This document shows, piece by piece, positions 2,460 through 25,700 of a stretch of 33,651 nucleotides of DNA. Within the stretch, counting starts at the first letter, position 1, and every line of letters starts with the position of its first letter. The position numbers and the translations under genes are program-made. The stretch is from an uncultured Alphaproteobacteria bacterium (lineage in GTDB: Bacteria > Pseudomonadota > Alphaproteobacteria > CAAHEQ01 > UBA3637), in the NCBI GenBank assembly GCA_947629595.1, contig CANREI010000003.1:1-33651 (forward strand), given 5' to 3'. Below the pieces are notes generated by a model. The model saw only the letters and a program-made list of their open reading frames with translations. It was not told where the DNA came from and did not search any database.

Positions 2460-3969
2460 TTTTTTTCAATTTTTAATGCTGATTATCGGCTTTTTCAGCC
2501 TGCTTCCCGCATGGGCGCAAGATTTTAAATCGGAAGTGGCCGTTGAATCGCTGCCCGAGTTATCGGCCAACGTTTTAGGCACGATTCCAACAAAAAATCC
2601 GCGCTTGTGGTCCGGCACACCGGCAGATAAGCTGTTGGAAACACTTGAAAAAACAGGAAAAGCAAATTTATCGCCCGCTGCACGCGCGCTGGTGACTTAT
2701 TTATTGCAATTAGACATAACGGGCGCCGGTTTTAACGATTCTCAAAATATTTTGCAATCGGATCAGTTTTTCGTTGCCCGATTAAAAACACTCGAACGCC
2801 AAGGTGAATGGGATATTGTTTTAAACCTGATTGAAAAAGTGCCCGAAACGGAAATAACAAACGAAATAAAGCAAATAAAAGCAACGGTTTTGTTAATGAA
2901 AGGGCTTGTGAAAGAAGCGTGTCAATTACAGGAAGAATTAGCCGAAACAAAAAATGAAAACGGAGAAGCCGTTTCAAATATTGAGGCCGATAAAATGCTG
3001 ATCAGCTGTTTTTTGGCAAAAGAGGAAAAAGACAAGGCCGTTTTGGCGTATGATGTGTTTCAAGACGCGCACCCCGATGCCGATTCGGATTTTACGGCAC
3101 TGGCCGATATGACGTTACGGGAACTACCGGTCGAATTGCCCGAAAATCTTGTTTTATCACCGAGTAATGTTTATTTGTATGCGTCGGTTAAAAATCCGAC
3201 ATTGAATATTGCCCTGCAAACACGGGAAGTGAAAAAAATATTGTCGGATTTACCCGCAACCGATATTATTTTACGCATTCGTCTCGGGGAACAAATCGGA
3301 TTGGATTTGACTGAATTACAACGACTTTATCGCTTGCCGCTCCTCAATTTACCGACGGATAATGCCGTTGCCCAAAGAGTGCAAACTTATCAACAAATTC
3401 AAGCCGAAACCGATGCATCGAAAAAAGCAGCCCTTATTTCAAAATGGCTGAACCTTATTCAAAAAGACAACTTGTTTGTGCCGCTGGCGCCCCTGATTGC
3501 CGAAACATTTCACCAACTGGAAGCCGATGAAAAATATATTGACTTGGCGTTATATGCCGTTCAAGCGTTTGCCTTAACAAAAAATCCGGCAGCGGCAGAA
3601 CCGTGGTTTGAGTTATTGGAAGATAACGATCTGTATCAGCAACATTACTTAACGGCCTCTTTATTACTGCAAACCCTCGGCAGCGGCCCGCGGGATTTTC
3701 AAGAACGGCTCGATTATTATTGCTCCTATGCCAAACCGATTGACTGCGCGCGTTTAAAAAGATTTCTGCCCGAAGAAAACGACGATGAAATTTCTTCTTC
3801 CGAAAAAGAAAAAACGAACCTCACAACACAACTCGGCGAATCGCTTTTGAATGCCGTTTTAAATATTGCCGACGGAAAAGACGTCAAAGACTCTTACACT
3901 TTTATTCAAAAAGCGGCGCGACCCGTCCAAGGTCGTGCCTTATTAAGAGAGGGGATTATTTCACAATGA
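2449..3969 (+). CDS. Exported alpha-helical repeat-like protein of unknown function
   Basis: 506 aa; signal peptide MPNNFFQFLMLIIGFFSLLPAWAQ^D; helical TPR-like remainder; ATGA-type overlap with xerD. Confidence 0.75.
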   Translation: MPNNFFQFLMLIIGFFSLLPAWAQDFKSEVAVESLPELSANVLGTIPTKNPRLWSGTPADKLLETLEKTGKANLSPAARALVTYLLQLDITGAGFNDSQNILQSDQFFVARLKTLERQGEWDIVLNLIEKVPETEITNEIKQIKATVLLMKGLVKEACQLQEELAETKNENGEAVSNIEADKMLISCFLAKEEKDKAVLAYDVFQDAHPDADSDFTALADMTLRELPVELPENLVLSPSNVYLYASVKNPTLNIALQTREVKKILSDLPATDIILRIRLGEQIGLDLTELQRLYRLPLLNLPTDNAVAQRVQTYQQIQAETDASKKAALISKWLNLIQKDNLFVPLAPLIAETFHQLEADEKYIDLALYAVQAFALTKNPAAAEPWFELLEDNDLYQQHYLTASLLLQTLGSGPRDFQERLDYYCSYAKPIDCARLKRFLPEENDDEISSSEKEKTNLTTQLGESLLNAVLNIADGKDVKDSYTFIQKAARPVQGRALLREGIISQ

Positions 3970-4871
3970 AGCAGGCGCAAATCGAGGCTTTTTTGGAAAT
4001 GATGATTGCCGAACGCGGCGCATCACCCCGCACCATTGCTTCTTATCGGCATGATTTGGAAGATTTAAACGCGTTTTTATCGGCGCGTCACATTCAGGCA
4101 ACAAAAGCCGAACAGATTGATTTACAAACATATATGCGCTCTTTAACCAAGCAAGGATTAAGCCCGAAAACGTGTACACGACGGCTGTCGGCCATTCACG
4201 AATTTTATCGGTTTTTATTTTCGGAAAATATCATTAAAAAAAATCCCGCCGATTATTTGGAGGCACCGAAAACAGGGAAATCTCTGCCGAAATATTTAAC
4301 GGAACGGGAAGTTGCAACACTTATTCAAACGGCTGCACAAAAAAACACGCGTATGCGGGCTTTATTGGAAATTTTATATGCCTCCGGTATGCGCGTGAGT
4401 GAATTGGTTTCGCTGTCCGTGCAAGCCGTCACGAAAGATAATCGTACCGTTTCGGTTGTCGGAAAAGGCAATAAGGAGCGCCTTGTCCCTTTAAACGAAG
4501 CAGCGCGGTTGGCGCTCAATGATTGGTTAACGGAACGGGAGCTGACTTTAAAAAAAGGGCGCTATTCCAAATGGCTGTTTCCGTCAAGCGGCGCATCGGG
4601 CCATTTAACCCGAGACGGTTTTTTTAAAGCCTTAAAAGAAATTGCTTTAACCGCCGGTATTATGCCCGATAAAGTTTCGCCGCATGTTTTTCGACATTCG
4701 TTCGCCAGTCATTTAATTGCGCATAACGCCGATTTGCGCACCGTTCAGCAAATGCTCGGGCATGCCAACATTGCCACAACGGAAATTTATACGCACATTT
4801 TGCAGGACCGATTAAAAAACACGGTTGAAAAATCACATCCTTTGGCGTATAGTAGAAAAAAGGATTTATAA
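3966..4871 (+). CDS. xerD: Site-specific tyrosine recombinase XerD
   Basis: 301 aa; SAM-like N domain; catalytic motifs ASGMRVSEL, HVFRHSFASHL, LGHANIATTEIYTH; next to divergent aroK, an arrangement known in alphaproteobacteria. XerC cannot be fully excluded. Confidence 0.8.
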   Translation: MKQAQIEAFLEMMIAERGASPRTIASYRHDLEDLNAFLSARHIQATKAEQIDLQTYMRSLTKQGLSPKTCTRRLSAIHEFYRFLFSENIIKKNPADYLEAPKTGKSLPKYLTEREVATLIQTAAQKNTRMRALLEILYASGMRVSELVSLSVQAVTKDNRTVSVVGKGNKERLVPLNEAARLALNDWLTERELTLKKGRYSKWLFPSSGASGHLTRDGFFKALKEIALTAGIMPDKVSPHVFRHSFASHLIAHNADLRTVQQMLGHANIATTEIYTHILQDRLKNTVEKSHPLAYSRKKDL

Positions 4872-7800
4872 ATGAAAATTTTGAACAGATACATTTTAAA
4901 ACAACTGATTGTTGCTTTCTTGTTGATTTTACTGGGATTAACAACGCTTGTTTGGTTAACTCAATCCCTGCGTATGATTGATATGATTGTAACCCAAGGC
5001 GTTTCGGTGCGTATTTTTATTCAAATGACTTTATTGGTTTTGCCGAATTTTTTACAAATTCTGTCACCGCTGACGTTGTTTGCCGTTATTTTATTTATTT
5101 TCTCCCGCATGCAGAGCGATAAAGAAATTACGGTTATGCAGGCCATCGGTATGTCCAACGGGCAAATTACCCGACCGGTTCTTTTACTGGCCCTGCTCTT
5201 AACGGTTTTCGGTTATATCATGACGCTGGATTTAATTCCGGCTTCCTATGCCAAACTGAATAAACTGCGTTGGCAGGTTCGGAACGATTTATCGCATCTT
5301 CTTTTACAGGAGGGGCAATTTAATTCGTTCAAAAACGGCTTAACGCTTTACATTCGCGAACGCTTATCCGACGGAACGGTTCGCGGCGTGATGGCGTATG
5401 ATGCAAAAGATCCGGAAAAAATTGCCGTGTTGGTTGCCGAAAACGGTTTGATTTTTCAGGAAGATGACGGTTTTCAACTGATTTTTCATAAAGGAACGCG
5501 TCAAGAATATAATCCGAGCACACAGAATTTTTCCATTTTAAAATTTGATAAATATACCATGTTTTTTAATGATAAAACCAATGCGGACAGTGCCAAAAAT
5601 TCAAGTGCTTCCGAATATTCTTTATCTTATTTGGCGGCGGCAACACCCGAAAGCGCACCGACACCTGCCATGTATCGCAAATATAAAGTAGAAATCATTA
5701 AACGATTGACAAAACCTTTATATAACTTAACGTTTGCCTTTTTGGCATTGTTCGGTGTGTTGGCTCCGTTTTATAATCGGCGCGGACAAATCGGACGCAT
5801 TTATTTCGTGATTTTTTGCACTTTATTGGTACAATCCGCCAACTTGGGATTGGAAAATCTGGCAACCAAAAATCTTGTTTTTTCACCTTTGTTGTTTATC
5901 AATATTTTTCTGCCCGTTATTTTGGTGTGGTTCTTTTCGAAACAACGTTCATTTAAATTTTTCCGTTTTAAAAAAGCCGTCGTTATTGCCGGATTAACCG
6001 GTGCCGTTCTCGGCAGTGCCGTGCCGGCAGAAGCACAAATTAAAATTGATCCGCAAATTAAAATTGAAAAAGATCAACCGATTGATTTTGAAGCCGATAC
6101 GTTTTCATACGATGAAAAAAACGATATCGTAACGGCTTCGGGCGATGTTATCGTTTCGCAAAACGGCACAACCGTTAAAACCGATACATTTTCTTTTTAT
6201 CGACAAAAAAACGTGGTGGTCATGCCGAATAAAGTGCGTATTTACACCAAAGACGGTACCGTAACCGATGCCGAAAACGTTTCTTTTTCCGCCGATATGA
6301 ATGATGTGTTGGGTGAGGCGGTTTTTATGCGTTTATACGAAGGATCGCTGTTAACGGCAAATCGGTTGAAACGCAAAAATGAAGGACAGGCCCTTTATTT
6401 AAAAAAAGCCGCCTACACCCCTTGCACAACCTGTGACGGCGATTCGCCTTTATGGCAAATTACCGCGCGCAATTTCAAACATGACGTTCCCGAAAAAGAA
6501 ATGATTTTTACGCACTCCTTTTTGGAGGTGAAAGACATTCCCGTTTTTTATGTGCCGTATTTAAATATTCCCGATTTTACGGTGAAACGGAAAACCGGCT
6601 TATTGGCGCCCAGCTTTTCACACGGCTCCGAAATGAAACAAGGGGTCAATCTGCCGTTTTTCGTGAATATTGCCGATAATCAAAACTTAATTTTACAACC
6701 AACCTTTGCCATCGATCATGATCCGTTGGGGGTGTTTGATTATTCGGCACTGTTTTCCCATGCCCAAGTGAATTTACAAGGCAGCGGCACACGCGATAAT
6801 GACGGCACAAATCAAGGGCATATTAAAGCCGATATGCGCTATGATTTGAACGATAATTGGCGATTCAGCGGACAATATTATCGCGCTTCAAGCGATACCT
6901 ATTTCCGGCGTTACCGTTTGCCGAATGTTAATACTTCACAGGCCTTTTTACGGTCATTCATCACCACCGAACGATTTGGCGAACAAAATTACTTTAACCT
7001 GACAGGGCTTTCTTTTCAAAGTCTTTATCGAAACGCCGATCCCAAAGCTTTGCCCGTATTGATTCCCATCTTGAATTATTCCTTGCAAACCGATCCGCTC
7101 ACGGATAACGGCTTATATGCTTTTTCGGATATTAACGGCGCCATGTATAACAACCGTTTACGGTTTAAGTCGGATCGCATTTCCTTAAATCAAGGTATTG
7201 CATTGCCCGTTGTAACAAACTGGGGTGCCAATGTTGATTTAAAAGCACAAGTGCGCGGCGATGCCTATCATGTCGATACGGGAAAAAACAGCTTTGATCA
7301 TCGCCCCAAAGACGATACGTATTCTGCCGGACGCCTGTTCCCGATTGCCTCGGCAAAAATCAGTTATCCGTTTATCAATGCCGGCACGCAAACAACGCAG
7401 GTTTTGGAGCCGATTATTATGTTAATTACGTCACCCGTCAGCGGCAATTCTTCCAAAATTCCCAACATTGACAGTACCGATGTTGATTTCGATGATACAA
7501 ATTTATTTACCGAGAACCGATTCGTCGGCTATGATCGCGTGGAAAACGGATCGCGCGCCAATTACGGCGTTCAGTGGTCTTTATATGACTATAAAAATCG
7601 CTCTTTATCCGCTTTATTCGGACAATCCTATCGTTTTTCGGGGGATGACGAATATGATCATATTGTCGGGTTAAAATCAAACTTTTCCGATTATGTCGGA
7701 CGCATGAAAATTGATTACAAAAATCTGTCTCTTGCCTATCGCTTTCGGTTAGATGAAAATACTTGGGAAGCCAAAAAGAATGAAATTTCCTTATCCGGCC

Positions 7801-8123
7801 GCGGCGGCCCCTTGCGTTTAGGGATGAGTTATACCCAACTGAAAGCGGTACGACTTGCCAATACTTTTTACAACGAAAGGGAAGAAATTTTGTTTTACGG
7901 CGCTTCAAAACTCACGCAAAAGTGGAATTTATCCGGCTTTTATCGATATAATTTGGCCAAAAACGATAAAGGACCCACGGAATACGGCGTTGTTTTACAA
8001 TATGATAACGATTGCACCGCTGTTGAGTTTGATTTAAATCGTTCTTTCACAAAAGATCGGGATTACGAAGGGGACACCTCCTTTGTCGTGAAATTTATTT
8101 TAAAAACATTGGGACAAATGTAA
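4872..8123 (+). CDS. LptF-LptD fusion: LPS-export permease (about aa 1-360) joined to LPS-assembly outer-membrane protein (about aa 389-1083)
   Basis: N-half: RYILKQLIVAFLLILLGLTTLVWLTQSLRMIDMIV...LPNFLQILSPLTLFAVILFIFSRMQSDKEITVMQAIGMS plus C-terminal TM set, LptF-like. C-half: OstA-type DFEADTFSYDEKNDIVTASGDVIVSQNGTTV..., then LptD signatures AAYTPCTTCDGDSPLWQITA and terminal LKTLGQM. No stop between. Confidence 0.9.
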   Translation: MKILNRYILKQLIVAFLLILLGLTTLVWLTQSLRMIDMIVTQGVSVRIFIQMTLLVLPNFLQILSPLTLFAVILFIFSRMQSDKEITVMQAIGMSNGQITRPVLLLALLLTVFGYIMTLDLIPASYAKLNKLRWQVRNDLSHLLLQEGQFNSFKNGLTLYIRERLSDGTVRGVMAYDAKDPEKIAVLVAENGLIFQEDDGFQLIFHKGTRQEYNPSTQNFSILKFDKYTMFFNDKTNADSAKNSSASEYSLSYLAAATPESAPTPAMYRKYKVEIIKRLTKPLYNLTFAFLALFGVLAPFYNRRGQIGRIYFVIFCTLLVQSANLGLENLATKNLVFSPLLFINIFLPVILVWFFSKQRSFKFFRFKKAVVIAGLTGAVLGSAVPAEAQIKIDPQIKIEKDQPIDFEADTFSYDEKNDIVTASGDVIVSQNGTTVKTDTFSFYRQKNVVVMPNKVRIYTKDGTVTDAENVSFSADMNDVLGEAVFMRLYEGSLLTANRLKRKNEGQALYLKKAAYTPCTTCDGDSPLWQITARNFKHDVPEKEMIFTHSFLEVKDIPVFYVPYLNIPDFTVKRKTGLLAPSFSHGSEMKQGVNLPFFVNIADNQNLILQPTFAIDHDPLGVFDYSALFSHAQVNLQGSGTRDNDGTNQGHIKADMRYDLNDNWRFSGQYYRASSDTYFRRYRLPNVNTSQAFLRSFITTERFGEQNYFNLTGLSFQSLYRNADPKALPVLIPILNYSLQTDPLTDNGLYAFSDINGAMYNNRLRFKSDRISLNQGIALPVVTNWGANVDLKAQVRGDAYHVDTGKNSFDHRPKDDTYSAGRLFPIASAKISYPFINAGTQTTQVLEPIIMLITSPVSGNSSKIPNIDSTDVDFDDTNLFTENRFVGYDRVENGSRANYGVQWSLYDYKNRSLSALFGQSYRFSGDDEYDHIVGLKSNFSDYVGRMKIDYKNLSLAYRFRLDENTWEAKKNEISLSGRGGPLRLGMSYTQLKAVRLANTFYNEREEILFYGASKLTQKWNLSGFYRYNLAKNDKGPTEYGVVLQYDNDCTAVEFDLNRSFTKDRDYEGDTSFVVKFILKTLGQM

Positions 8124-8133
8124 AGGGGAAAAA

Positions 8134-9312
8134 ATGTTAAAATACGGATTGATTTTATTGATGTTATTATTCGGTTACACGGCACAAGCCGGGCAAATTG
8201 TGGCAACGGTGAATGATGAACCGATTTCCAGCTTTGATGTGGAAGCGCGCGCCAAACTTATTGCCGTTCAACGAGCGGAATATTTAAACAACAAACGAAA
8301 AGCACAATACATTAAAGAGGCGCTTGATTTAATCATTGATGAAAAAGTGAAAAACATTGAAGCCAAAAAATACGGCTTTACGGTCAGTGACGCCGATGTT
8401 GCCCAAGCTATCGCGCATCTTGAAAAGCAAAACAATTTAAAACCGGGTGAAATGAAAACAATGCTGGCCAAAAACGGTGTGCCGATTGAAGTGTTGCAAA
8501 ATCAGCTGAAAACCGATTTGTTGTGGTTACAGGTCATTCAAAAACAATATGATGCCGGTATGACGGCACTGCCGGCCGAAATTGAAAAGAAAAAACAGGA
8601 ATTACGGGCAAAACTGAGAGAAGAAGAATTTTATGTGTTTGAAATTCTCATTTCCGGCAAAAAAGAGGCCGAACAATGCTATAAAGAATTGCGCAGCGGC
8701 ACGCCTTTCGATCAAGTTGTTGCCAAATATTCCAAAGCGCCCACAAAAGATGTCGGCGGTGAAGTCGGTTGGATAAAACCCGGCCATTATTCCAAAGAAA
8801 TCACAGCTGTTTTACGGCAATTAAACATTGGTGATTTATCGGCACCGTTAAAAACCAAAAACGGTTATTTAATTTTGTTACTGCAAGAGAAAAAAACACC
8901 CCTTTATTCCGATTCCGTCACGTTATGGGAATTGGCACAAATGGCTATGCCGACAAAAGAGGCCGTTCAATTTGAAAAAGAATTAACCGCTTTAAACGGA
9001 TGTGAGTCGTTTTTAAATTTTGCCGATACGCACGCCATTAAAGAATCCGTTAAATCCGGATTGGTGGCCCCCGATCAATTACCGAACGAGCTGAAAGAAA
9101 TTTTATCCGAAGAACCCGTTAAAACAGCCATCGGCCCCGTTCGCACGCAAGATGCCGACGTATTTTTTATGAAATGTGCCATCCGAACAAAAAAAGTTTT
9201 GCCGGATGATGATATCATTAAAGCACAAATTGAAAATGACAAAATGGAAGCACTTTCCGATAAATTGTTAAGAAACGCCAAACGGTTTGTCGTGATTGAA
9301 CGGAAAAAATAA
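8134..9312 (+). CDS. surA: SurA-like periplasmic peptidyl-prolyl isomerase/chaperone
   Basis: 392 aa; signal peptide MLKYGLILLMLLFGYTAQAG; N-terminal SurA chaperone region (IVATVNDEPISSFDVEAR); parvulin core (GGEVGWIKPGHYSKEI...GDLSAPLKTKNGYLILLLQEKK); follows lptD. Confidence 0.88.
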   Translation: MLKYGLILLMLLFGYTAQAGQIVATVNDEPISSFDVEARAKLIAVQRAEYLNNKRKAQYIKEALDLIIDEKVKNIEAKKYGFTVSDADVAQAIAHLEKQNNLKPGEMKTMLAKNGVPIEVLQNQLKTDLLWLQVIQKQYDAGMTALPAEIEKKKQELRAKLREEEFYVFEILISGKKEAEQCYKELRSGTPFDQVVAKYSKAPTKDVGGEVGWIKPGHYSKEITAVLRQLNIGDLSAPLKTKNGYLILLLQEKKTPLYSDSVTLWELAQMAMPTKEAVQFEKELTALNGCESFLNFADTHAIKESVKSGLVAPDQLPNELKEILSEEPVKTAIGPVRTQDADVFFMKCAIRTKKVLPDDDIIKAQIENDKMEALSDKLLRNAKRFVVIERKK

Positions 9313-10300: not shown

Positions 10301-11236
10301 ATGATAAAAGGATATCAATATTTATTTTTATCATTGGCAGGGTTTCTGCTTTGTTTTTTTATAACAACACCCGGTTTCGGACAGATGCTGATTTATGGTA
10401 TGGGTGTGGCTGCCGAAAGTGCCGAAGCCGCAACAGAAGATATGAAAACGGTTCGAAAACCCATTTCTTTGGTTAACCAGCAAACACAAGCTCTTGTCAG
10501 CGGTTTTACCGAACAACTCAACAGTTTAACCGAATCCATACAAGGGAATGTGATGGATACGGTTAATGAATATAAAGACAAAGCTAACGAGGCCATTACG
10601 GACAAATTTCAACAAGCAAACGACTGGATGGATAAGAAAAAACAAGCTGCCGATTCGTGGATGGAAGATCAGGCACACAGTGCCGGTGATTGGATCAGTG
10701 ATCAATTTTCTTCATCAAGTCCCGGATCGGGTTTCAGTTTAAGCAGCGGCACCATGAAAAATGTGAAAGGCGCCTTTACCGCCATGGGAAAATTAGCCGC
10801 GCCCGCAGCAGCTTTGGCTTCCGGCAATCTTATAGGCGGTTCGGCGGAATTGGGCAAAACGTTATTCTTGGGCAAAACAAATACGGAAGATAAACTGTCT
10901 TCTTACGACGCAACCTCCGTTCAAAAAAATGTGAAACAATACATACAAGATGCCACCGCAACAACCCTGGGCGATGCAACAAAAATCATTAACGTATCTG
11001 CTCAATACGACGGAAAAGACGGAACGGCCAAAGCAGCAAGTACGGCTGCCAACAAAGCCATTAACATTCGGGAAGATATTAAAAACGCAACGGAAATGGG
11101 CATTTCCATGAATGTTATGACGAATACGTTACTTTCTATGGATATTACCGATTTATCCATTCAAAGCGCTTTAATTTACGGAGAATTAAACAATATGAAA
11201 AACATGACCATCAAAGCTATGGGTTTGGGAGGATAA
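10301..11236 (+). CDS. Exported helical T4SS-locus protein 1 with hendecad repeats
   Basis: 311 aa; signal peptide MIKGYQYLFLSLAGFLLCFFITTPGFGQ; strong SD; four 11-residue repeats around aa 90-135. Confidence 0.8.
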   Translation: MIKGYQYLFLSLAGFLLCFFITTPGFGQMLIYGMGVAAESAEAATEDMKTVRKPISLVNQQTQALVSGFTEQLNSLTESIQGNVMDTVNEYKDKANEAITDKFQQANDWMDKKKQAADSWMEDQAHSAGDWISDQFSSSSPGSGFSLSSGTMKNVKGAFTAMGKLAAPAAALASGNLIGGSAELGKTLFLGKTNTEDKLSSYDATSVQKNVKQYIQDATATTLGDATKIINVSAQYDGKDGTAKAASTAANKAINIREDIKNATEMGISMNVMTNTLLSMDITDLSIQSALIYGELNNMKNMTIKAMGLGG

Positions 11237-11238
11237 TC

Positions 11239-12165
11239 ATGAAAGTGAGATTTTTCTTCCTAACTCTTTTTATGGCATTTTTTTCATTTAAAGTATCCGC
11301 ACAAGTACCGGCAATGGATCCGCATGAGTTGGCTCAATCGGCCAAAACATTATCAACCAGCGTTGAAGATTTGAACAAAGAAATTGATCAAACTCAAAAA
11401 GAAATTAAGCAATTGACGGATTTTGGCTCTCTCACATCGGGATTGATGTCGAGTATTCAAGGGTTTGCCGGTTTGCCGGGAACACTTTTAGATCAAGTTT
11501 TAGATGTAAACTTTTTGTTTCCGAAAAAAATCAGCGATGATGCCAAAGAAGCTTTACCGCAACAAACACAACAAAGTCAGGCCGATAAATTAACGGGGGG
11601 TGCCGCCAGTGCCGCAACAGGATTGTTAGGCGGAAGCAACAATGACAAACTTCCCGAAGGGGAAGAAGCCAAAAGCATTGCTAAATCTATGCAAACAGAA
11701 GACAGTGAAGGTTGTGTCGAGACCGGTTCCGATATTGCCGGCGCGGCACAAGATATCATCGGATCCGTTACCGGCGGTTCCGGAACAAAAAAATGTCCGA
11801 CCGGCACGGAAATAGCTGCCAAACGGCAACAACTCGGAAATTCAAAGCAGGCCTTTGCCCGATTTACGTTGGCAACCGGTTTGGTTAACCGAACATTGGC
11901 TTATCGTACAATCATTAACAACAAAAAAGAAACGCAGTCATCAACCGGCTCCGCCAACACCATTCGACAAGCGCATACCACTAAAACAACCGGCATTACC
12001 GCCATGGCGGATACTTACAATCGTTTACTTTTTTCACAGGCGGTCGGAAACGGATTACAAGCATTCAAAGCAATGGATCAAATTGAAGGCCGAATCAATC
12101 TCAGCATTCCGGTACCAACGGGCTCAGGTGATGCCTTGGGAACATTGAAAGGATTTATGAAATGA
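11239..12165 (+). CDS. Exported helical T4SS-locus protein 2
   Basis: 308 aa; signal peptide MKVRFFFLTLFMAFFSFKVSAQ; coiled-coil VEDLNKEIDQTQKEIKQL; C-terminal helical region. Confidence 0.8.
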   Translation: MKVRFFFLTLFMAFFSFKVSAQVPAMDPHELAQSAKTLSTSVEDLNKEIDQTQKEIKQLTDFGSLTSGLMSSIQGFAGLPGTLLDQVLDVNFLFPKKISDDAKEALPQQTQQSQADKLTGGAASAATGLLGGSNNDKLPEGEEAKSIAKSMQTEDSEGCVETGSDIAGAAQDIIGSVTGGSGTKKCPTGTEIAAKRQQLGNSKQAFARFTLATGLVNRTLAYRTIINNKKETQSSTGSANTIRQAHTTKTTGITAMADTYNRLLFSQAVGNGLQAFKAMDQIEGRINLSIPVPTGSGDALGTLKGFMK

Positions 12166-12980
12166 AAAAACATCTGTTACTCTTATTGATCAGTTTGAGC
12201 ATTTCATCTTCCGCAATGGCGCAAGGATATGTCATTACCGAATGGATGAGTTTTGTGGAGCGAACATTACAACAGGTCACCGAAGATATTTCAAACATTG
12301 ATTTCGATGATATTCTGGGTACCAAAAAAGAAGAACAAAAATCGCAAGATCCTTCCGCCGACGGCAATCCTGCCGTTAATGAAAACGTCAGCAGCGTTCC
12401 GGTTTCCGAATTTCCGCCGTATGCCGATGCCAGTTTAAGAGCGGAATTATCAAAAGAAAACCCCTCCATTCCGACTGTTAACACACTGATTAAAGATTCT
12501 TTAACTTTTAAATCCAAAACAACGGAAAAAGAAGGCGATGCTTATTTAAAAAGCGGTGACTTTGAAGTGAAAGAAGGAACTTTAGGAACCGGCAACTATA
12601 AAACAAAGGCAAATATAACGGTAACGCCCGAAAAAACCGAAAACAATAAAAACACATTGGAAAAACAACAGGCACAAGCCATTGTTGTTTATGCCAATGC
12701 ACGGGCATTAGCACGGCGTACACTTGATTTAATTGATAAGGTTGAAGATGATACCCAAGTTATGACAAATGAAAAAAATCAAAAATCATCAACGGGGTCA
12801 TTATATAAAACAACGGCAGCGTCTTTAATTTTCAGAACGCACATGCTTTTAAATGAAATTGCAACGTTACGCAACAGCTATATTGAAATTTTATCCATCG
12901 ATACCATTCAAGGCGAAGAAGCAGCGCCTTCGGCAACGGATCAACTCACGGGAATGGTGAAAGGCGTACTGGGAAAATAA
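12162..12980 (+). CDS. Exported helical T4SS-locus protein 3
   Basis: 272 aa; signal peptide MKKHLLLLLISLSISSSAMAQ; ATGA overlap with previous gene; C-terminal helices with SSTGS element. Confidence 0.8.
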   Translation: MKKHLLLLLISLSISSSAMAQGYVITEWMSFVERTLQQVTEDISNIDFDDILGTKKEEQKSQDPSADGNPAVNENVSSVPVSEFPPYADASLRAELSKENPSIPTVNTLIKDSLTFKSKTTEKEGDAYLKSGDFEVKEGTLGTGNYKTKANITVTPEKTENNKNTLEKQQAQAIVVYANARALARRTLDLIDKVEDDTQVMTNEKNQKSSTGSLYKTTAASLIFRTHMLLNEIATLRNSYIEILSIDTIQGEEAAPSATDQLTGMVKGVLGK

Positions 12981-12992
12981 GGAGAAAATAAC

Positions 12993-13805
12993 ATGAAAAA
13001 AACAGGATTTCTTTTAGGTCTTTTCTTATTTATTCCGACAATTGCCATGGCCGTTTGTCCGGCAATGACAACCAATCCGCCGCGAACCGTTAAAGGAACA
13101 ATGAAACAAGTTAAAAATTTCATTGTTGAAAAATACGAAGAGTTATCGGAAACGGCAGAAGAACAGAAAAAAGAAGCCAAGTCCGGCAATCAAGGGTGTA
13201 GCGCCAGTCCGCAAAACACGGCAGATCAATCCATAAAAATCAAAGTTTATGAATATTTGGCAGATAAAGTCATCGGACATGATGATGAAACGGAAGAATT
13301 TTTAACACCGACAAAAGACTTTACGGAAGCGCGGAAACAAGTTAAGGAAAAATTGTTTCAACCGGCGCCGCCGCAACTAACGGAAAGAGGCGAAAAATTA
13401 CAAGAATACACCGGTTTCAATACGCAAGTGGTCGGGCAAGTCGGAAATACGATTGATCAGGTGCGCGCCCTGCTTCGGCGAGATGAATATGCCAACGCCG
13501 TTGCTTCCAAAAACTTGGAAATTGCAACCGAATTACGTAAAAAAATATTGGAAGATATTTCTTCCACGCAACAAGCCGCAACAGACGGATGTAATCAATT
13601 GCAGGGATTAGTTTTGGAAAACAGAAATTTAGGTGCGTTGGTGGCCGAAACGGCTTCCGATATTACCATTCAAATTTTAACACTTGAATCTATGGCTGCC
13701 CGAAACCTGCAAAAGGAAGAAATTTCTTTGGTGCCGGTACCAAAGGTACCCAAAGCAAACAAAAACGGCGATCAAACGACAAAACTCGGCGGAATAGTAA
13801 AATGA
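12993..13805 (+). CDS. Exported helical T4SS-locus protein 4
   Basis: 270 aa; signal peptide MKKTGFLLGLFLFIPTIAMAV; SD AAGGAG; ATGA-type overlap with next ORF. Confidence 0.8.
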   Translation: MKKTGFLLGLFLFIPTIAMAVCPAMTTNPPRTVKGTMKQVKNFIVEKYEELSETAEEQKKEAKSGNQGCSASPQNTADQSIKIKVYEYLADKVIGHDDETEEFLTPTKDFTEARKQVKEKLFQPAPPQLTERGEKLQEYTGFNTQVVGQVGNTIDQVRALLRRDEYANAVASKNLEIATELRKKILEDISSTQQAATDGCNQLQGLVLENRNLGALVAETASDITIQILTLESMAARNLQKEEISLVPVPKVPKANKNGDQTTKLGGIVK

Positions 13806-14647
13806 AACCGAAGGAGAACAAAAAAATGAAACAAATGAAAAAAGGGCTTTTTTATGTATCGACAGCTTGTTTTCTTGTGTTTTCGAGCTTGACGGCTTAT
13901 GGCGAATGTCTTGTTTTCCCGCCGGTTTGTCCGATTGAAATGTGCGGATATCAAACACAGGATAATCCGGGCGAACAAATGCTTCAAAAAACGGTTTCCA
14001 CCTATAAACAAACCAAAAAGGTCATTAAAACCGCCCGAAAATCAATCGATCATATTGTCAGTATGGCAACTTCTTTACCGGGTACCATATCCAGTTTGGT
14101 TTTAAAAGCCATGACATGGCCGTTTAAAAAACTCGGTGACTGGTTCGGATTGACCGAAGATGCCGTTGATGAAGATACCCAAGGCATTACGCAAGATAAT
14201 TCTCATGGCGACATCAGTATCAGCGAACGGATTACCCGCGATTTAAAAGCTTATGCCACCGAACCGCAAACAGCTGTTGAAGTGAAAGAATTCAATCAAC
14301 AACGGCGGAAATATATTCGGCAGCAGGCAACCATTACGTTAATGGCGCGCGTTTTAACGCTTAAAGCAAGGCTTAACGATATTAAAGATGTTATGGAGGA
14401 AACAAAAGCACAAGTTCAAAAGAATGTGTCTGCTTCCGGCGGGGATCCGAGCAAAACATACAACGAATCTGCCTTAATTAAAACCAATTACGAATTAAGA
14501 CAAGCGTGGTTTAAATTATTGGCTATTCAACGGCATATCGAAGCCGTAAAATTGGAGTATGCCGCCAATCAGGCCATGGCGGGTATGAAAATGATTAAAA
14601 CAGTGCCGACAGTTGCCGGTAATGACAAAAACAGCAAAACAAAATAA
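13802..14647 (+). CDS. Exported helical T4SS-locus protein 5
   Basis: 281 aa from 13802; the internal ATG at 13829 (MKKGLFYVSTACFLVFSSLTAYGE region; MKQMKK) after AAGGAGAAC is a possible alternative start giving a cleaner signal peptide. Confidence 0.75.
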   Translation: MKPKENKKMKQMKKGLFYVSTACFLVFSSLTAYGECLVFPPVCPIEMCGYQTQDNPGEQMLQKTVSTYKQTKKVIKTARKSIDHIVSMATSLPGTISSLVLKAMTWPFKKLGDWFGLTEDAVDEDTQGITQDNSHGDISISERITRDLKAYATEPQTAVEVKEFNQQRRKYIRQQATITLMARVLTLKARLNDIKDVMEETKAQVQKNVSASGGDPSKTYNESALIKTNYELRQAWFKLLAIQRHIEAVKLEYAANQAMAGMKMIKTVPTVAGNDKNSKTK

Positions 14648-14656
14648 GGGGGTTAC

Positions 14657-16324
14657 ATGAAGTACTCAACACTTTTATTAACAGGATTTTCACTCTTCGG
14701 GTTTATCACGGGTCTGCCGCAAACGGCATCGGCACAGTTTTCACAGGTAGAACCGTATATTGAAGAAGCAAAACCGGTTAAACCGGTTGAAAATTACAAA
14801 AATTCAATGATTCGGGCAATGGCACTTCATAACATTCAGTTTCAAATTAACTATATGTTAAATTCACTGATTCCCTCTTTAAAAGAAGAACAAGAAAAAC
14901 GGGATTTATCCGCAGCGCAAAACAAAGCGTTAAAAGAGTGCACAATTTTATCGTTATCAAATGTTTACTCTAATGCGGAAGAAGCCTATAACAACATTCA
15001 GTCCGCATTTAACGACAAAGTGAAAACCATAACGGTTTATATTAACGAAACCGGCGATACAACGGCCGATACGGATAACGCCGAAGCCTATCCTTACTGG
15101 CGGGTTGGTCGCGAAGTATTAACAGATGTTTATGAAAATCCGGAAAAATACGGGCAAAAGAAAGCAGATTTCCCGTTGTGGACAGATCAAAAATATCTTT
15201 ACACACAAGGGGTGAATGCTATTTTATCGGATATTCATAATAAGTTTACATTGCCCGAATCAAACGGAAGAACGCAAATTCCCCAAAATAAAGCCTTTAA
15301 TGACAAATTGGCGGAATACTTAAACGCTTTTTCACAACAAAACGGTATTTTAAACACGTTGGATTATACCCAAAACAGCAAAAAATACTCCGACCTGTTA
15401 AATTATTTAAAAGAACACCCGAAATATGAAGCATTAAAACAGAATGTAATGCCTGCTTTACCGCCATTGCCGAAACCCTTACCGCCGTTCTATGAAATGA
15501 TTCAATTAACCGAAGATCCGGCACAAAGCGGCACCATTTTCCCCGAATGGCCGGCACCGTGGGCAGAATATATCCGTCGGGGGTTGGATAAACGCGCGGT
15601 CGGCGGTGAAATGGATACCTGTTTCCTGCCCAAGTCCATTACGTTACGACCCGATGTCAGAAACTGGGATAAAACAAAAATTAACAACCGTCTTTCTTTG
15701 ACAAAAGAAAAAGAGGAAGAATTAGCCAATTTCCAAGCAACCGTTGCCTCGGCACAAGAAAGTTTGTTTAAAACCGTTGACAGCATTAACCAGGCTTTAA
15801 CCGAAAACGGCTTTACGCAACAACTTGATTTGGAAAAAATCTATCTCGACAACAAGTTTGATAGAATCAGCCAACTTGATTTGGAAAACACAAACACGAC
15901 AGAAATTCAAAAAATTGTAAAAGAAGCCAAAATGGAAGCCATTCAAAAAGGGTTGACTTTGTTTAAGCAAACGCCTCAAACCGTTAATGCAAACAATCCT
16001 TCCGTTGAATTATCATTGAATATGTTGGGCGATATGGATCCTAATTCCGAAGAATATAAAGACATGATGGATAAAATGAATGCCGCTCAATCGGCTTCCG
16101 ATGAAAAGTTTTTGAATGATATGGCACAAGACAGTGACGGTATCGGCTTACAAAGCAATTTATCAACAAATGATGCCGCTCAAAATATTGAAAGCCAAGA
16201 ATCTCAATATGCTTTACAAAAAGAAACCTTTGAAGAAGCCAAAAAAGAAAGAGTTGTATTGTGGCAAACGCCTATTGATAATGAAACGTGTATTAACGGT
16301 GGCGTAGCTTCGGCAAAGCCTTAG
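14657..16324 (+). CDS. Exported T4SS-locus protein 6, unknown family
   Basis: 555 aa; signal peptide MKYSTLLLTGFSLFGFITGLPQTASAQ; SD AAGGGGG; Pro-rich segment ALPPLPKPLPPF. Confidence 0.8.
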   Translation: MKYSTLLLTGFSLFGFITGLPQTASAQFSQVEPYIEEAKPVKPVENYKNSMIRAMALHNIQFQINYMLNSLIPSLKEEQEKRDLSAAQNKALKECTILSLSNVYSNAEEAYNNIQSAFNDKVKTITVYINETGDTTADTDNAEAYPYWRVGREVLTDVYENPEKYGQKKADFPLWTDQKYLYTQGVNAILSDIHNKFTLPESNGRTQIPQNKAFNDKLAEYLNAFSQQNGILNTLDYTQNSKKYSDLLNYLKEHPKYEALKQNVMPALPPLPKPLPPFYEMIQLTEDPAQSGTIFPEWPAPWAEYIRRGLDKRAVGGEMDTCFLPKSITLRPDVRNWDKTKINNRLSLTKEKEEELANFQATVASAQESLFKTVDSINQALTENGFTQQLDLEKIYLDNKFDRISQLDLENTNTTEIQKIVKEAKMEAIQKGLTLFKQTPQTVNANNPSVELSLNMLGDMDPNSEEYKDMMDKMNAAQSASDEKFLNDMAQDSDGIGLQSNLSTNDAAQNIESQESQYALQKETFEEAKKERVVLWQTPIDNETCINGGVASAKP

Positions 16325-16342: not shown

Positions 16343-16984
16343 ATGTCTTTTTTCAATTTCAGTTCCCAAGGATTGATTTACGGGTTAAGTGAAAAATTAG
16401 CCAAGTTTTGGATGATTGTTACTTCAATTATCATCGGAATAAACTTGTTTTTAATTTTAACACTGCTGCAAATGGCACCGAAACTGCAAGTTGTGGCGCA
16501 GGTGTTAACATCTTCCCCGATGACGTCTGTTCAGCTGTTGCAAACGGAACCGTTTTCACAAAGCACCAGTGATAAGAAACTGATTGATGAAACCATTTTA
16601 CGTTTTTATCTTGATTCGCGCTATAATACCTTTCAAGATAAAGATGAAATGAATTATCGGTGGGGACCGAGCGGACCGGTTGCCTTTTTTTCATCACCCG
16701 CTGTTTACCGAGCATTTACCACCGGATTAAGCGATAAAATTACGGCCATTTCTCACAATAAATCTTCAACCAGTATCGATATTATTTCCGTTTCCCGCAT
16801 TGATAACATTTATACGGTTGAGTTTGATGTCTATACATATATTCGCGGGCAAGTTTCAAAAAAACGCCGAATTGCCGTTGTGGAAGTCGCTTACAGTCCG
16901 GCACGACGGTCATTTAACACCATTCATTCCAACCCGTTCGGTATGTATATTCAAAAATTCACGGAAACAATAAAAAAAGAATAA
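16343..16984 (+). CDS. VirB8-like inner-membrane T4SS component (copy 1, divergent)
   Basis: 213 aa; one N-terminal TM, NTF2-like periplasmic domain (ETILRFYLDSRYNTFQDKDEMNYRWGPSGPVAFFSSPAVYRAF...), ending SNPFGMYIQKF, comparable to the VirB8 NPLGFxV ending. Confidence 0.7.
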   Translation: MSFFNFSSQGLIYGLSEKLAKFWMIVTSIIIGINLFLILTLLQMAPKLQVVAQVLTSSPMTSVQLLQTEPFSQSTSDKKLIDETILRFYLDSRYNTFQDKDEMNYRWGPSGPVAFFSSPAVYRAFTTGLSDKITAISHNKSSTSIDIISVSRIDNIYTVEFDVYTYIRGQVSKKRRIAVVEVAYSPARRSFNTIHSNPFGMYIQKFTETIKKE

Positions 16985-17247: not shown

Positions 17248-17952
17248 ATGCCAAATCAGGATCAACCCATCGAGCAAAATTCTCAAATCGTCTATGAAGG
17301 CGATATTTCGGAAGAAGCCGTTACGGAACGTCGCTATTTATGGATGGCGCGAACGTTTGCGTTGGTTGCGGTTGTTTCTTTTTTAAGCACGCTGATTTTA
17401 TTGATTGCTCTTTTTTCGCTGTTACCCATTGTGCGTGTGCAACCGTTTTATTTAACAACGCTGAACAAAGAACAGCAGGTTATTCGGGTGGTGCGTCCGA
17501 ATTTTAATAATATCAATATGCAAATGTTAAGCGAATCGCTGATTCGGCAATATTTGTTGGCGCGAATGACGGTTAATTCCAATATTTCCGAAATGGAACA
17601 ACGTTGGGGCATTGACGGCATTATTAACTGGATGAGTTCACCTGTTGTGTTCGAAGAATTCGGTCGAACGGCAGAAGCCGCACTGAATCAGGCACGAAAC
17701 GACGGATTAACTCGTGCCGTTAAAATTTTGAACATTACACCCTACCGAACGGAAAAAAACGGAACGGCCATTTGGCGGGCGGAAATTGAATTAACCGATT
17801 TAAAATACGGTGATTCCGAACCCGTGCGCTCTTTATGGCAAATTACATTGCGTATTCGTTTCAAACCGACTCGGCAGGGGTTAAAATGGGAACAACGGCT
17901 TAAAAATCCGCTCGGATTTACGGTTGAAAATTTCGGTATTCAACGAAAATAA
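17248..17952 (+). CDS. virB8: VirB8-like inner-membrane T4SS component (copy 2)
   Basis: 234 aa; single TM then VirB8 domain with WGIDGIINWMSSPVVFEEF and RLKNPLGFTVENF. Confidence 0.85.
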   Translation: MPNQDQPIEQNSQIVYEGDISEEAVTERRYLWMARTFALVAVVSFLSTLILLIALFSLLPIVRVQPFYLTTLNKEQQVIRVVRPNFNNINMQMLSESLIRQYLLARMTVNSNISEMEQRWGIDGIINWMSSPVVFEEFGRTAEAALNQARNDGLTRAVKILNITPYRTEKNGTAIWRAEIELTDLKYGDSEPVRSLWQITLRIRFKPTRQGLKWEQRLKNPLGFTVENFGIQRK

Positions 17953-19787: not shown

Positions 19788-22700
19788 ATGCAAGGAAACA
19801 AAAGAACAAGCTCGTCAGAGCAATATACAAAAAAAAGCAACCGTACACTCTTATTCGGTGGCATCATTTTACTGCTCGTTTTTTTAACGATGCTTGTTTT
19901 AATGTCGAACGGCAAAAAAGTTCAGGAAGAAGAGCAAGAACCGGATTGGACAAATACTCAAATTGAAGAACGGGAACAAGAAATTCAAAACGGTGATCCC
20001 TTTTCCAGCGGTGATGCCCAATTAAAAGCGGAACCGGCTCAAATTGAAATGAATAATGTTGTGTTGGGCTCCAAAGTGGAAGCTATTTTAACCTTAACGG
20101 CGGAAAAAGCGCCCATCCAATTCAAAAAACTTGAATTTGCCCAACAACAGGCCGACGGGTTTACAACGGAAACAACCTGTTCGCCCGATACACCGATTGA
20201 AGTCGGCAAAAATTGTATTGTGAAAGTGTTATGGAATCCCATTGCCTTGCAACAACTTCAAAATAACCTGGTTATCACGTGGAAAGAAAATTCAACACGT
20301 GTGATTACCGAACAAACAACAACCGTTGTTGTTAAGGGGCAATCCACCGATTCAAAAGATTGCGTTATTTGCGAAGATATTCGGAAAAAAGAAGCCGTTG
20401 AACCGAAAATGGCCATGGGTTTAAACGGAGAGATGTATCCCATTAACGCGGACGACAACACCATTACCATTGACGGGAAAAAGGTTCACATGACCGAAAA
20501 CGGTGTCTTTATTGATGAAGAAGGGAACATTGTTGCCATTGCTCCGCCGGAATATATTGCTTTAAATATGCAAAATGAGCTGATGGGAACGGTTTCCGAC
20601 ACAAATGAAGTGATTGATGCCAACGGTGAAAACGTGGGAAAAACATTGGGTGATAAAACCATTGTCGATTCCAAATTAACCGTTTTAGGGGCGGCGGTTC
20701 CCGTTTTGTCCGTTATGGATACCCAAGGGAAAGTCATCGGTAAAATGACAAAAGAAGGAACGGTTGTTGACGGATCCGGCACCGTTATCGGCAAAGTTTG
20801 GGTTGATCATCAGGTGTTTTCCATCGACGGGCAATTTATGGGCTATATTCGCCCGTGGGGATTGGTTGCCGATTTTTCGGGAAAAATTCTCGGTGCCATT
20901 ATTCCGGACGGAACCGTTATTAACGGTAAAAACGAAACCATCGCCAATATTACGCCGAACGGTTTTGCCATCAATGCCCAAGGAGAGCTGATCGGTGCAA
21001 CCATTCCGGAAGGCGTGGCGGTCGGCCCGGGTTGTCAATCGTTGGGAAAAGTGTTGCAAAACGGTGATGTACGGGATTCTTACGAACAAGTCATCGGAAA
21101 AGCTTTAATTGACGGCACAATCGTCAACACGGCAAACGAAGAAATCGGTTCCGTTATTTCACAAGGGTTGGTTATTAACGAAAAAGGCGAAGTCATCGGT
21201 TATGTCAATTCCGAAGGAAAAGCCGTCAGCAATGCCGGAAAAGTCATCGGTTGTATCAATCCCGACGGCACCATTTCTGCCGGTAAAAAGTTTATCGGTG
21301 CCGTTTTAAGCAAAGGGCATGTCATCGGCTATTCCTGCGGAACAATCGGAACGGTTTTCCCTTCCGGTGAAGTGTTTAATAATGCCTTGCATCCGGTGGG
21401 ACGTGTTATGCCGGACGGACTTGTTAAAAGCGCCGAAAATAAAATTATCGGTATGGTGGTAACGCGGGCGGCTGCCGTGGCCGACGGTTGTCGGTTATTG
21501 GGACTTGTTTCCGTTAACGGGCAAGTGTTGGATTTGGCCAATCAGCCCGTCGGTTGTGTTACACCGGAAAAAACGGTTATCAATGATAAAGGCGACGTGT
21601 TGGGCAGTTTGGCACCGCGCGGCGTTGTTCATAAAGATGACGGAACAGTGCTGGGACGTATTCGTTTAGACGGTAAAGTTATGGATATGGAAGGCAAGGT
21701 TATCGGTTGTGTGAATGCGGACGGCTCCGTTACTTCTTTAACGGGTGAAATTCTGGCACAAGCCCCGACCAAAGACGGTATTATTATGGGAGATGACGGG
21801 AATCCGACCGGTTGGACAAGAGTCGGAAACGATATTATTGATCAATACGGGAATAAAATCGGAACGGTTAACAAAAATAATGCTATTGTCGATGCAACAG
21901 GCAAATATATCGGCTTTATTCCGCCCGACGGCTCTATTTTCTCTCCGGACGGATTGATTTTAGGTCGCTATTCCTCCAAAGTCGGATATGCGACCAATCA
22001 GGCAAACGAACGATTCGGAAAAGTGTTGTCGAATATGGTTGTTGTCAGTGCCGAAACGGGGGAAGTTGTCGGCGGTCTCATTAAAGATAAAACAACCTTT
22101 ATCAATCAAGCCGGACAAATTATCGGCACGTTAACGGCGGAAGGTATTTTAAAGAACACCGCCGGTGAAGTGGCGGGAGCGGTTCGCGGTGACGGAACGG
22201 TTATTGACAAAGACGGCAATATTATCGGCTGGCAAGTGCCGACGGGTGATGTGTTTTCAACAACCGGAAAATTTGTGGGAACGGCCATGGAATCGGGCGA
22301 AGTGTTTTCAACCGGTCACACAAAAATCGGAACAATTCTCGGAAACGGCATTGCTATTTCGACGGACGGAAAAATTTTAGGCGGTGTCTTGCCCAAAATG
22401 GCGCTGGCTATGGATGCCGACGGACTTGTCGGTTATTTGGCGCCCGACGGAAAAGTAACAAACACAACGGGTGCCGTTGTCGGACAAGGATCACCGTTCG
22501 GGCCGGTTATTTCTCCGGAAGGAGCGGTTATTGCCAAACTGGTCGGTTTAAATGTGTATGTTGATGCCCACAACAAAACCGTCGGCTGGGTATCGTTTGA
22601 GGGAACACTTAAAAACAAAGAAAATCGTGATATCGGTTTCGTAACCCCGAACAGAATGGCTTTCGATAAATCAAATCAATTGTTGGGATCCGAAATTCAA

Positions 22701-25700
22701 ACCGGTGTTGTGATTGATGAAACGGGACAAATGGTCTCGGTGATGGCCGTTAACAATAAAGTGTTGCAAAAAGACAGATTCTTGGGTGCCGGTTCCGCTT
22801 CACCTTATGTTTATGCCACCGATGACCGACCGATGGGACGTGTTTTACAACCCGGTGTCGGTATCGGAAACGACGGCTTGTTAATCGGTTGGACAAGAAC
22901 GGACGGTTCTATCGGAACACAAAGCGATTCGCTCGGAAACGTGTTGTTTGATAATCATATTATTAACGAAAAAGGAATGATTATCGGAACTTATGTGCCG
23001 TTCGGTGCCGTTGCTTTTTCCGATGAAGGGAAAACAATCGGCGTGATTGGCAAAAACGGGGAATTGGTAAACGATAACGATATTTCCAAAGGCAAAATCC
23101 ACGCGGCGGATTTAGTGGTTCAAAACGGTGAGATTTCAGGCAAACTCATGTGCGAACTGCCCTTTGTCAGCAATAATTTACTGGGCAAAATGTCGGGGCT
23201 TTCTCAATATACCGGCGAAGTGATCAGTCTGGCGAATAAAAAGAATATCGGAAACTTATTACCGAATGATTATGTCACAAGTATGAACGGACAAATCAGT
23301 GCCGGTTTAACGGCGCAGGGAACACCCGTCACAAACTCTTATACCTCATTGGGACAAGCTTATGTAAACGGTACAACGGCGTTAAAAAACAATCCGACGG
23401 GAGAAGTCAGCGGCATTAAAGTTATTTATGACAATACCGGCAAAGTTATCGGCAGCATTTTACCGGCGGCAACCTTTATCAGCAGAACGGGAAATTTCAT
23501 CGGTAAAACAGCTGCAAGTCGAATTGTGACAGACCGAAAAGGAAAGCAAGCGGCTTTGCAAATGAACTTCGGCTATGCCTTAACAAGTGATAATATTTGG
23601 GCGGGCGGTATTTTACCGAAAGGATTGGCCGTGAATGATGACGCCGAAGCCATCGGTACAATTATGCCGGACGGTATTGTTTTAGACAGTGCCGATTCGA
23701 TTGTCGGCCGCGTTTTGGCTGACAGTGCCGTCATTGAAGTAACCGATAAAGAACTCTTTAATACCATGCCTTATGCCGGTTCCGTTGTGGCACAGGGTAT
23801 GCCGTTCAGCTATCGGGGTAAAGTATTGGGTGTGACAACTTTAAACGGTGCTGTTAAAGACACATCGGGCAACAAGATTTTCAAAATATTGGATGACGGA
23901 ACAATTTTAGGCAAAGATGAACCGTTGGCCGGTGCCGTTTTACCGTTTACAACCGCGACCGGATATAAAGGCGAAGTGTTGGGAGCTTTGGCCGGCGACG
24001 GTAAAGTTTTATCACCGGACGGTGATTCGAAAGGAACAATTGCCGTGAATGAAACGGTCAAAGCATCCGAATTAAAAATTGTCGGTGCATTGGTTCCGTC
24101 ACGGTTAATCACCAACGATTGTAAAGTTGTGGGCGTAACCAGTTATAACGGACAGGTCGTTGATGCCAACGGAACGGTTGTCGGTTATGTTAAACCCGAT
24201 AAATGGGCCGTTAATGCGGCCGGGCAACAAATCGGCCGCGTGACCCGTTCCGGTTTGGTGATTGCCGAAAACGGCGATTATCTCGGCAGAACGCTGCCCG
24301 ATTCCACAGTGGTTGATTTAGCCGGCGTCAATATGGGTTGCGCAAAAAATGACGGTTCGGTTGTTGACAATAACGGAAATGTTATCGGAAATATTGTTGA
24401 ACGCGGTCTTGTTTTAGGTAAAGACGGAAAGCCTATCGGTCGAATTAAAGCGACCGGCCAAGTTGTGAATAAAGACGGCGAAGTCATCGGTAAAGTTTTA
24501 GCCAACGGTGATGTGGTTGATAACGAGGGCAATGTTATCGGACATAATGTTTCCCGTGATCAAGAATTGTTGTTTGACGAAAAAGGGAATATTAAAGGAA
24601 CTTTCGGAACGGACGGCACTTTCTATGATCCGAAAACAGGGAAAGCCGTTTTCAAAGTTGACGGCGAAACGGGCAATGTTTATGATCCGCAAGGAAATCT
24701 CATCGGAAAGTTGGATGAAAAAACCGGTAATATTACCACATTAGACGGAGAAACACTTGACAATCTCACCATGTTGGTTGATAAAGACGGGCATGTGTTC
24801 GGTATTGTTTCGGGTTGTGATGTTAAAAACAATCTGGGTGAAAAAATCGGCTCCATTTTGGCCAACGGAAACGTGGTGGATTTAAACGGTGATGTTTTTG
24901 CCAAAATTTTGGGTGACGGTACCATTTTGGATAAAGACGGAAACGAAATGGGGCGTGTTGCCGGAACTGATACCCGCTTAGATAAATGCGGCATTAAATC
25001 GGTTGATTCCATTGACAGTATTGATAAGAGCGATATCGGCGGTAGCGGTACCGAAATAGCGGGACGGAAAATCATTATCGGCAACCAAAAATATAACGTT
25101 TCCGAAAAAGGCTCCATCATCAGCGATGACGGAACAATTATCGGTTATATGGGTGAAGACGGCAAGCCTTATACGTTGGATAATCGGATATTAACGACCA
25201 GCGGCGATGTGGCAGGACGTTCGCGTCCGGATGTGAAGCAAACACAGAAGTTAACACCGGAACAAGTGCAACAAATTAAAGATTTATTGACACAAAAACG
25301 GGAAAGTATGCGTGCCGGCATTACCGAACGCGGCAAAATTACGGCAAACGGACAAATTCAAGCCATGAGTCGTCCCAAAAAAGACAAAAAATGGAAAGGC
25401 GTGGGCGCTATTGTTTCCTCATGGCCGGTTGATATGTCTCGCGTGATTTTAAAGGATAAAGCCATTCCTGCCGTTATTGTTCGATCGGTGGATTCGCGGT
25501 TCTCCGATGTGCCGGTTACGGCTATTGTGGAACGACATGTCTATGCCGAACAAGGACGCAACATTCTCATTCCGGCCGGCAGCCGTGTCATCGGTAAAAT
25601 GTCGCAAGGCGATAACGGCGGTAAAGTGGCCAAAATGGAAATCACTTGGGAGCGTCTTATTCGTCCCGACGGCGGTGCATTCAGCTTTGCGGCAACCTCG

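What the first reader, a model, noticed from the sequence alone, without database searches (positions are those of the whole stretch)
4872..8123. LptF and LptD encoded as one continuous polypeptide
Seen: one uninterrupted 1083-codon frame with a complete LptF-like permease followed by a complete LptD-like protein (OstA N-domain, CxxC, barrel, C-terminal end). Known: LptF is an inner-membrane ABC permease subunit and LptD an outer-membrane translocon; they are normally separate genes. Inference: two opposite-membrane ends of the LPS bridge are made from one message at fixed 1:1 stoichiometry, probably as a polyprotein.
Basis: partly seen in the sequence, partly recalled or inferred. Interest (0 to 1): 0.85.

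Follow-up and report, generated by a model that had tools for sequence, protein, structure and literature searches.

The report
LptF–LptD polyprotein in gut Alphaproteobacteria
In an uncultured order of gut Alphaproteobacteria, two essential lipopolysaccharide-export proteins that work in opposite cell membranes are made as one long chain, which carries a conserved internal cut site that should split it into an inner-membrane protein and an outer-membrane protein.

Summary
Window 4872-8123 is one uninterrupted 1083-codon frame: complete LptF (residues 1-356), a ~32-residue linker, complete LptD (389-1083). It is not an assembly error. All 38 genomes of the family whose junction is assembled carry the same fusion (13 genera, 42-92% identity); the order is represented by this family alone. 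The nearest outgroups have xerD-lptF-lptD-surA in the same order as separate genes, so the fusion arose once, after lptG had left the operon. A scan of 246 class genomes showed no other case among the matches listed. The linker looks like an LptD signal peptide without a conserved start codon: basic stretch, hydrophobic segment, AxA motif. The only invariant residue between P348 and P403 is A388, the predicted -1 residue of signal peptidase I. There is no conserved internal start. Best explanation: LptF inserts (six helices, C-terminus in the cytoplasm), the linker re-engages Sec, LepB cuts at A388|Q389, and mature LptD goes to the outer membrane. Cleavage is inferred, not measured. Unexpectedly, LptC and LptA are also fused in the same family, without an internal signal sequence, so probably as one uncleaved bridge protein. 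Closest precedent: Bradyrhizobium FbcH (from memory). New variant of a known kind.

The parts
4872..8123 (+). single ORF encoding the LptF-LptD polyprotein, 1083 aa plus stop
4872..5939 (+). LptF moiety, residues 1-356: six hydrophobic/TM segments and a periplasmic jellyroll between TM3 and TM4
5940..5975 (+). linker n-region, residues 357-368 (KQRSFKFFRFKK): basic, predicted cytoplasmic; 3-10 K/R and 0-1 D/E in all 40 distinct junctions
5976..6026 (+). linker h-region, residues 369-385 (AVVIAGLTGAVLGSAVP): extra hydrophobic segment after the last LptF helix, the core of the internal signal peptide
6027..6035 (+). predicted signal peptidase I site A386-E387-A388; cleavage expected after A388 (6035|6036). 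A388 is invariant in 40/40 junctions; position 386 is A/V/T/S in 40/40
6036..8120 (+). predicted mature LptD, residues 389-1083 (695 aa)
6090..6326 (+). LptD_N / OstA jellyroll domain, residues 407-485
6423..6434 (+). CxxC of LptD, C518 and C521, invariant in the family
6810..7925 (+). LptD Pfam core (barrel), residues 647-1018
8013..8015 (+). C1048 of LptD, invariant; possible disulfide partner for C518/C521 (inferred)
3966..4871 (+). xerD, immediately upstream (neighbour kept in unfused outgroups)
8134..9312 (+). surA-like chaperone gene, immediately downstream (neighbour kept in unfused outgroups)

Best explanation
The ORF is a genuine LptF-LptD polyprotein gene, fixed throughout one order of uncultured gut Alphaproteobacteria. 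Expected path: (1) ribosomes translate all 1083 codons from the lptF start; (2) LptF is inserted co-translationally with six TM helices, leaving its C-terminus in the cytoplasm; (3) the basic stretch and hydrophobic segment that follow are the former LptD signal peptide and re-engage Sec as an internal, cleavable signal peptide, sending LptD into the periplasm; (4) signal peptidase I (LepB) cuts after A388 in AEA|Q; (5) LptF, with a short tail helix, stays in the inner membrane and pairs with LptG and LptB, while mature LptD goes by the usual chaperone/Bam route to the outer membrane. The pair is synthesised 1:1 and LptD translation depends on LptF translation. Shown by sequence: the continuous translated frame, both complete domains, family-wide conservation, single origin, conserved signal-peptide features, no conserved internal start. 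Inferred: topology, LepB cleavage, final locations, any benefit of 1:1 synthesis.
For: ORF and domains. Family of 44 held genomes: 34 full-length one-frame fusions, 4 more spanning the junction but cut later (contig end, N gap or downstream frameshift), 1 with the contig break exactly at the junction, 5 lacking the whole gene block. GTDB species scan finds the same in MAGs from several independent projects. Linker: 40/40 distinct junctions have a basic stretch, a hydrophobic segment (best 10-mer mean KD 2.3-3.6) and small residues at -3 and -1; A388 is the only invariant column between P348 and P403. Continuity is selected: 0 in-frame stops against 161 and 105 in the other frames; linker dN/dS 0.22. 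No conserved internal start: no ATG in 18/40; the window has only GTG/TTG without SD pairing. LptF has an even number of TM segments, the topology an internal signal peptide needs. Outgroup LptDs have ordinary N-terminal signal peptides with a Met and no fusion. Internal contrast: the LptC-LptA fusion of the same genomes has no second hydrophobic segment.
Against: No protein-level data exist; all members seen are MAGs. No SignalP-class predictor was available; signal features were scored by hydropathy and motif only. Some members do have an ATG, and 5/40 an ATG with a fair SD, in the junction, so occasional internal initiation cannot be excluded there. Five high-completeness family genomes lack the locus.
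Confidence: 0.85

Rival explanations
1. Internal translation initiation: LptF is made from the 5' start and LptD separately from a start codon inside the linker, so the continuous frame is incidental and no polyprotein processing is needed.
For: Some members have an ATG in the linker, and 5/40 have ATG with SD energy <= -4 kcal/mol. Free-standing relatives start LptD at an overlapping or adjacent ATG.
Against: No ATG in 18/40 junctions; the window and its closest relatives have none and no SD, while 28/40 lptF starts have SD <= -4. Zero in-frame stops in 2078 linker codons would not be needed if translation restarted. The AxA and hydrophobic segment do not distinguish this rival.
Confidence: 0.07
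2. The product stays uncleaved: LptF and LptD remain one chain, tethered to the inner membrane by the linker helix and reaching the outer membrane as a covalent bridge.
For: The frame is continuous. A different fusion in the same family (LptC-LptA) does appear to stay uncleaved.
Against: The -1 Ala is invariant in an otherwise variable linker, which is hard to explain without cleavage. Only about 15 residues separate the helix from the LptD jellyroll, too few to span the periplasm even with the jellyroll's own length (inference). LptA-type domains are still encoded.
Confidence: 0.05
3. Assembly or sequencing artefact: a lost stop codon or chimeric contig.
For: The window's own genome is a fragmented MAG (151 contigs, 77% complete).
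Against: The same frame occurs in 38 genomes of 13 genera from several projects, with 40 distinct junction sequences.
Confidence: 0.01
4. Relaxed selection: the fusion is decay in reduced genomes.
For: The genomes are small (0.7-1.8 Mb).
Against: Both halves are under strong purifying selection (dN/dS about 0.06 each), and C518, C521 and C1048 are invariant.
Confidence: 0.01

Closest known systems
FbcH of Bradyrhizobium japonicum (cytochrome b / cytochrome c1 precursor; Thony-Meyer et al. 1989, 1991; from memory, no paper on it found in the held library)
   Same: One gene for a polytopic inner-membrane protein followed by an exported protein, joined by an internal signal sequence that is cleaved.
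   Different: Unrelated proteins; both FbcH products stay in the inner membrane, whereas here the second product is an outer-membrane barrel.
Canonical Lpt system with separate lptF, lptG, lptD genes (e.g. alphaproteobacterial lptF-lptG-lptD operons, L043, L044, L047, L048)
   Same: Same LptF and LptD families and the same kind of operon next to surA.
   Different: There the three genes are separate; here lptG is elsewhere and lptF is joined to lptD.
Sister lineages f22 and f3 (G055, G192, G285, G036): xerD-lptF-lptD-surA
   Same: Same gene order, lptG absent from between, nearest branches in the LptD tree.
   Different: lptF and lptD are separate adjacent or overlapping genes; LptD has its own start codon and signal peptide.
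Fused LptC-LptA of the same family (e.g. L173, L174, L175, L176, L177)
   Same: Also joins two Lpt components that are separate in the outgroups.
   Different: No internal signal sequence: expected to remain one inner-membrane-anchored periplasmic bridge.

Membership tests
LptF (TIGR04407 / PF03739) | score above curated cut-off over nearly the whole profile; LptF rather than LptG | tested here: met
   235-239 bits against cut-off 230; LptG model 82-86 against 240
LptF (TIGR04407 / PF03739) | six TM helices with a jellyroll between TM3 and TM4 | tested here: met
   AF2 secondary structure and hydropathy; Foldseek to LptF chains
LptD (PF04453 + PF03968) | N-terminal jellyroll plus C-terminal barrel above Pfam cut-offs | tested here: met
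   188.3 bits (cut-off 22.4) and 27.6 bits (cut-off 20.4); Foldseek LptD E 4e-42
LptD (NCBIfam equivalogs NF002997 / NF003358) | whole-protein score above the curated cut-off | tested here: not met
   128-130 bits against 683 and 70-72 against 944; these models look narrow (known-lineage equivalogs), so this speaks against those equivalogs, not against LptD in general (inference)
LptD (PF04453 + PF03968) | conserved cysteines for inter-domain disulfides | tested here: inconclusive
   C518, C521 and C1048 invariant; only three, and the disulfides themselves were not tested
Signal-peptidase-processed polyprotein (FbcH-like) | single continuous translated frame, under selection for continuity | tested here: met
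Signal-peptidase-processed polyprotein (FbcH-like) | internal n-region, h-region and AxA site between the two proteins | tested here: met
   40/40 junctions, by hydropathy and motif only
Signal-peptidase-processed polyprotein (FbcH-like) | cleavage in vivo into two proteins | not testable with these tools
   needs N-terminal proteomics or a blot

The most novel reading that the evidence does not exclude
An entire bacterial order has rebuilt the LPS bridge from fused parts: LptF-LptD as a signal-peptidase-processed polyprotein that ties synthesis of the two opposite-membrane ends, and LptC-LptA as one continuous, anchored periplasmic bridge protein of variable length.
Probability: 0.7. Interest if true: 0.7.

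Novelty: new variant of a known kind. Interest (0 to 1): 0.62.

Why it matters
If confirmed, it would be a bacterial polyprotein whose two products end up in opposite membranes, and a natural case of the two ends of the essential LPS bridge being made in equal amounts from one translation event. It gives a direct test of whether Lpt assembly benefits from coupled synthesis. The LptC-LptA fusion offers a natural single-chain bridge for structural and stoichiometry questions; the number of LptA units in the bridge is described as unknown (PMC10094684). It also warns annotators that gene-by-gene searches for LptD and LptF will misname or split this locus.

Tried and rejected
Independent LptF/LptG-LptD fusions elsewhere: LptD frames over 1000 aa in G072, G128, G237, G200, G084, G206, G262, G163, G086 and G111 (and the long frames in L100, L101, L108) looked like fusions, but lptF and lptG lie in other frames; they are out-of-frame extensions upstream of LptD. 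Apparent split members L083/G067 (N gap), L079/G061 (frameshift late in LptD) and G063 (contig ends at the junction) are not unfused cases. Loss of LptD in five genomes: xerD, surA and folD orthologues are missing as well while LptG remains (LptC/LptA-type proteins were found in G016 and G028; of the five only G013, G016 and G028 were searched for them), so a missing stretch is likelier than gene loss. Papers: no report of an LptF-LptD fusion in the held library; no paper on FbcH processing was found there; nothing on a natural LptC-LptA fusion.

Full report
OBSERVATION. Window 4872-8123 (+) is one ATG-started frame of 1083 codons. Residues 6-355 match the LptF/LptG permease profile end to end; 407-485 match LptD_N and 647-1018 the LptD core. 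The permease is LptF by curated cut-off (235-239 bits against 230), not LptG (82-86 against 240). LptG is a separate gene on another contig of the same genome, G000:C134. An AF2 model from 31 aligned relatives gives the LptF fold, a low-confidence linker (358-402) and the LptD jellyroll and barrel; Foldseek matches LptDE entries (best E 4e-42) and LptBFGC entries (E 4e-14).

NOT AN ARTEFACT. Of 44 held genomes of the family (13 genera), 34 carry the full fusion in one frame; G008, G019, G061 and G067 span the junction but are cut later by contig ends, a late frameshift or an N gap; in G063 both contigs end at the junction; G010, G011, G013, G016 and G028 lack the locus. So all 38 genomes with an assembled junction are fused. 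The order-level search returned the same 44 genomes. A scan of GTDB species genomes found the fusion in MAGs from several projects; the closest, 89-92% identical, come from 'Lapin' (rabbit, by name) assemblies, others from rumen, cecum and rectum samples. Over 40 distinct junctions the linker has 0 stops in 2078 codons in frame and 161 and 105 in the other two frames; in four close relatives the linker dN/dS is about 0.22, against about 0.06 for both domains. The linker is therefore translated and selected as protein.

ORIGIN. In families f22 (G055, G192, G285) and f3 (G036) the order is xerD-lptF-lptD-surA, as in the window, with lptF and lptD adjacent or overlapping as separate genes, and no lptG between them; LptD there starts with its own Met and signal peptide. 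In the other alphaproteobacteria read here lptF-lptG-lptD is the usual order. An LptD tree puts all fused members in one clade (100/100), with f22 as sister (94/86) and f3 next (100/96). So lptG left the operon first, and the fusion happened once, on the stem of this order. In a class-wide sample of 246 genomes, every listed LptD frame over 1000 aa outside the family proved to be an out-of-frame extension; the list of matches was cut by the tool, so the weaker ones were not inspected.

LINKER AND MECHANISM. Between P348 in LptF and P403 in LptD the sequence varies freely in letters and length, but all 40 junctions keep 3-10 K/R with 0-1 D/E, then a hydrophobic segment, then small residues at -3 and -1; A388 is the only invariant column. 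This is the pattern of a signal peptide that no longer has a conserved start codon. LptF has six TM helices, so its C-terminus should be cytoplasmic, the side from which an internal signal peptide must start (topology from established LptB2FG structures). Internal translation starts are not conserved: 18/40 junctions have no ATG, and the window has only GTG/TTG without SD pairing, whereas 28/40 lptF starts have fair SD pairing. The best explanation is co-translational insertion of LptF, re-engagement of Sec by the linker, and cleavage by signal peptidase I after A388. The cleavage itself is inferred.

A SECOND FUSION. In the same family LptC and LptA are also one protein (about 330-625 aa), encoded between a sugar-isomerase (kdsD-like) gene and a gene of lptB size: LptC and LptA-type domains lie in one frame in G012, G014, G018, G022 and G023 (gene names of the neighbours by reading, not by profile). 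In the outgroups LptC is a separate protein of about 215-256 aa. The fused proteins have one N-terminal hydrophobic segment and none later (max 15-mer KD 0.5-1.4 after residue 60), so they should stay uncleaved. The contrast with the LptF-LptD linker supports cleavage of the latter. In G000 and G001 the LptC part falls below the Pfam cut-off and only LptA-type stretches pass; the G000 protein is the longest (625 aa), which may mean extra jellyroll units.

PLACE AMONG KNOWN THINGS. The parts are LptF and LptD by profile and fold tests; the narrow NCBIfam LptD equivalogs are not met. As a strategy it resembles FbcH of Bradyrhizobium (cited from memory). No report of an LptF-LptD fusion was found in the held library, which does not cover most subscription journals.

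LIMITS. No proteomics; no SignalP-class predictor; all members seen are MAGs; why five complete-looking genomes lack the whole xerD-lptFD-surA-folD block is not explained.

Noticed in passing
G012, G014, G018, G022, G023 and others (L173-L181); own genome L170:1969-3843 (-): LptC and LptA-type domains in one frame, followed by a gene of lptB size; outgroups have separate LptC. Length varies from about 330 to 625 aa.
   Followed up: partly
window 19788-26393 (+): 2201-aa TrbI/VirB10-like protein with about ten Bflower_2 repeats and a DUF3659 match ahead of the TrbI domain, next to VirB8, CagX and T2SSE-type genes: a type IV secretion locus with a giant repeat-bearing VirB10.
   Followed up: no
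window 16343-16984 and 17248-17952 (+): Two VirB8-family genes in a row.
   Followed up: no
G010, G011, G013, G016, G028: Five family genomes of 97-100% stated completeness lack xerD, lptFD, surA and folD orthologues as a block while keeping LptG; cause unknown (unassembled or withheld stretch suspected).
   Followed up: partly
window 10301-16324 (+): Six consecutive ORFs of 270-555 aa; none has a Pfam match at E <= 0.001 (the only lead is a weak TrbJ match for 11239-12165), probably part of the secretion locus.
   Followed up: no
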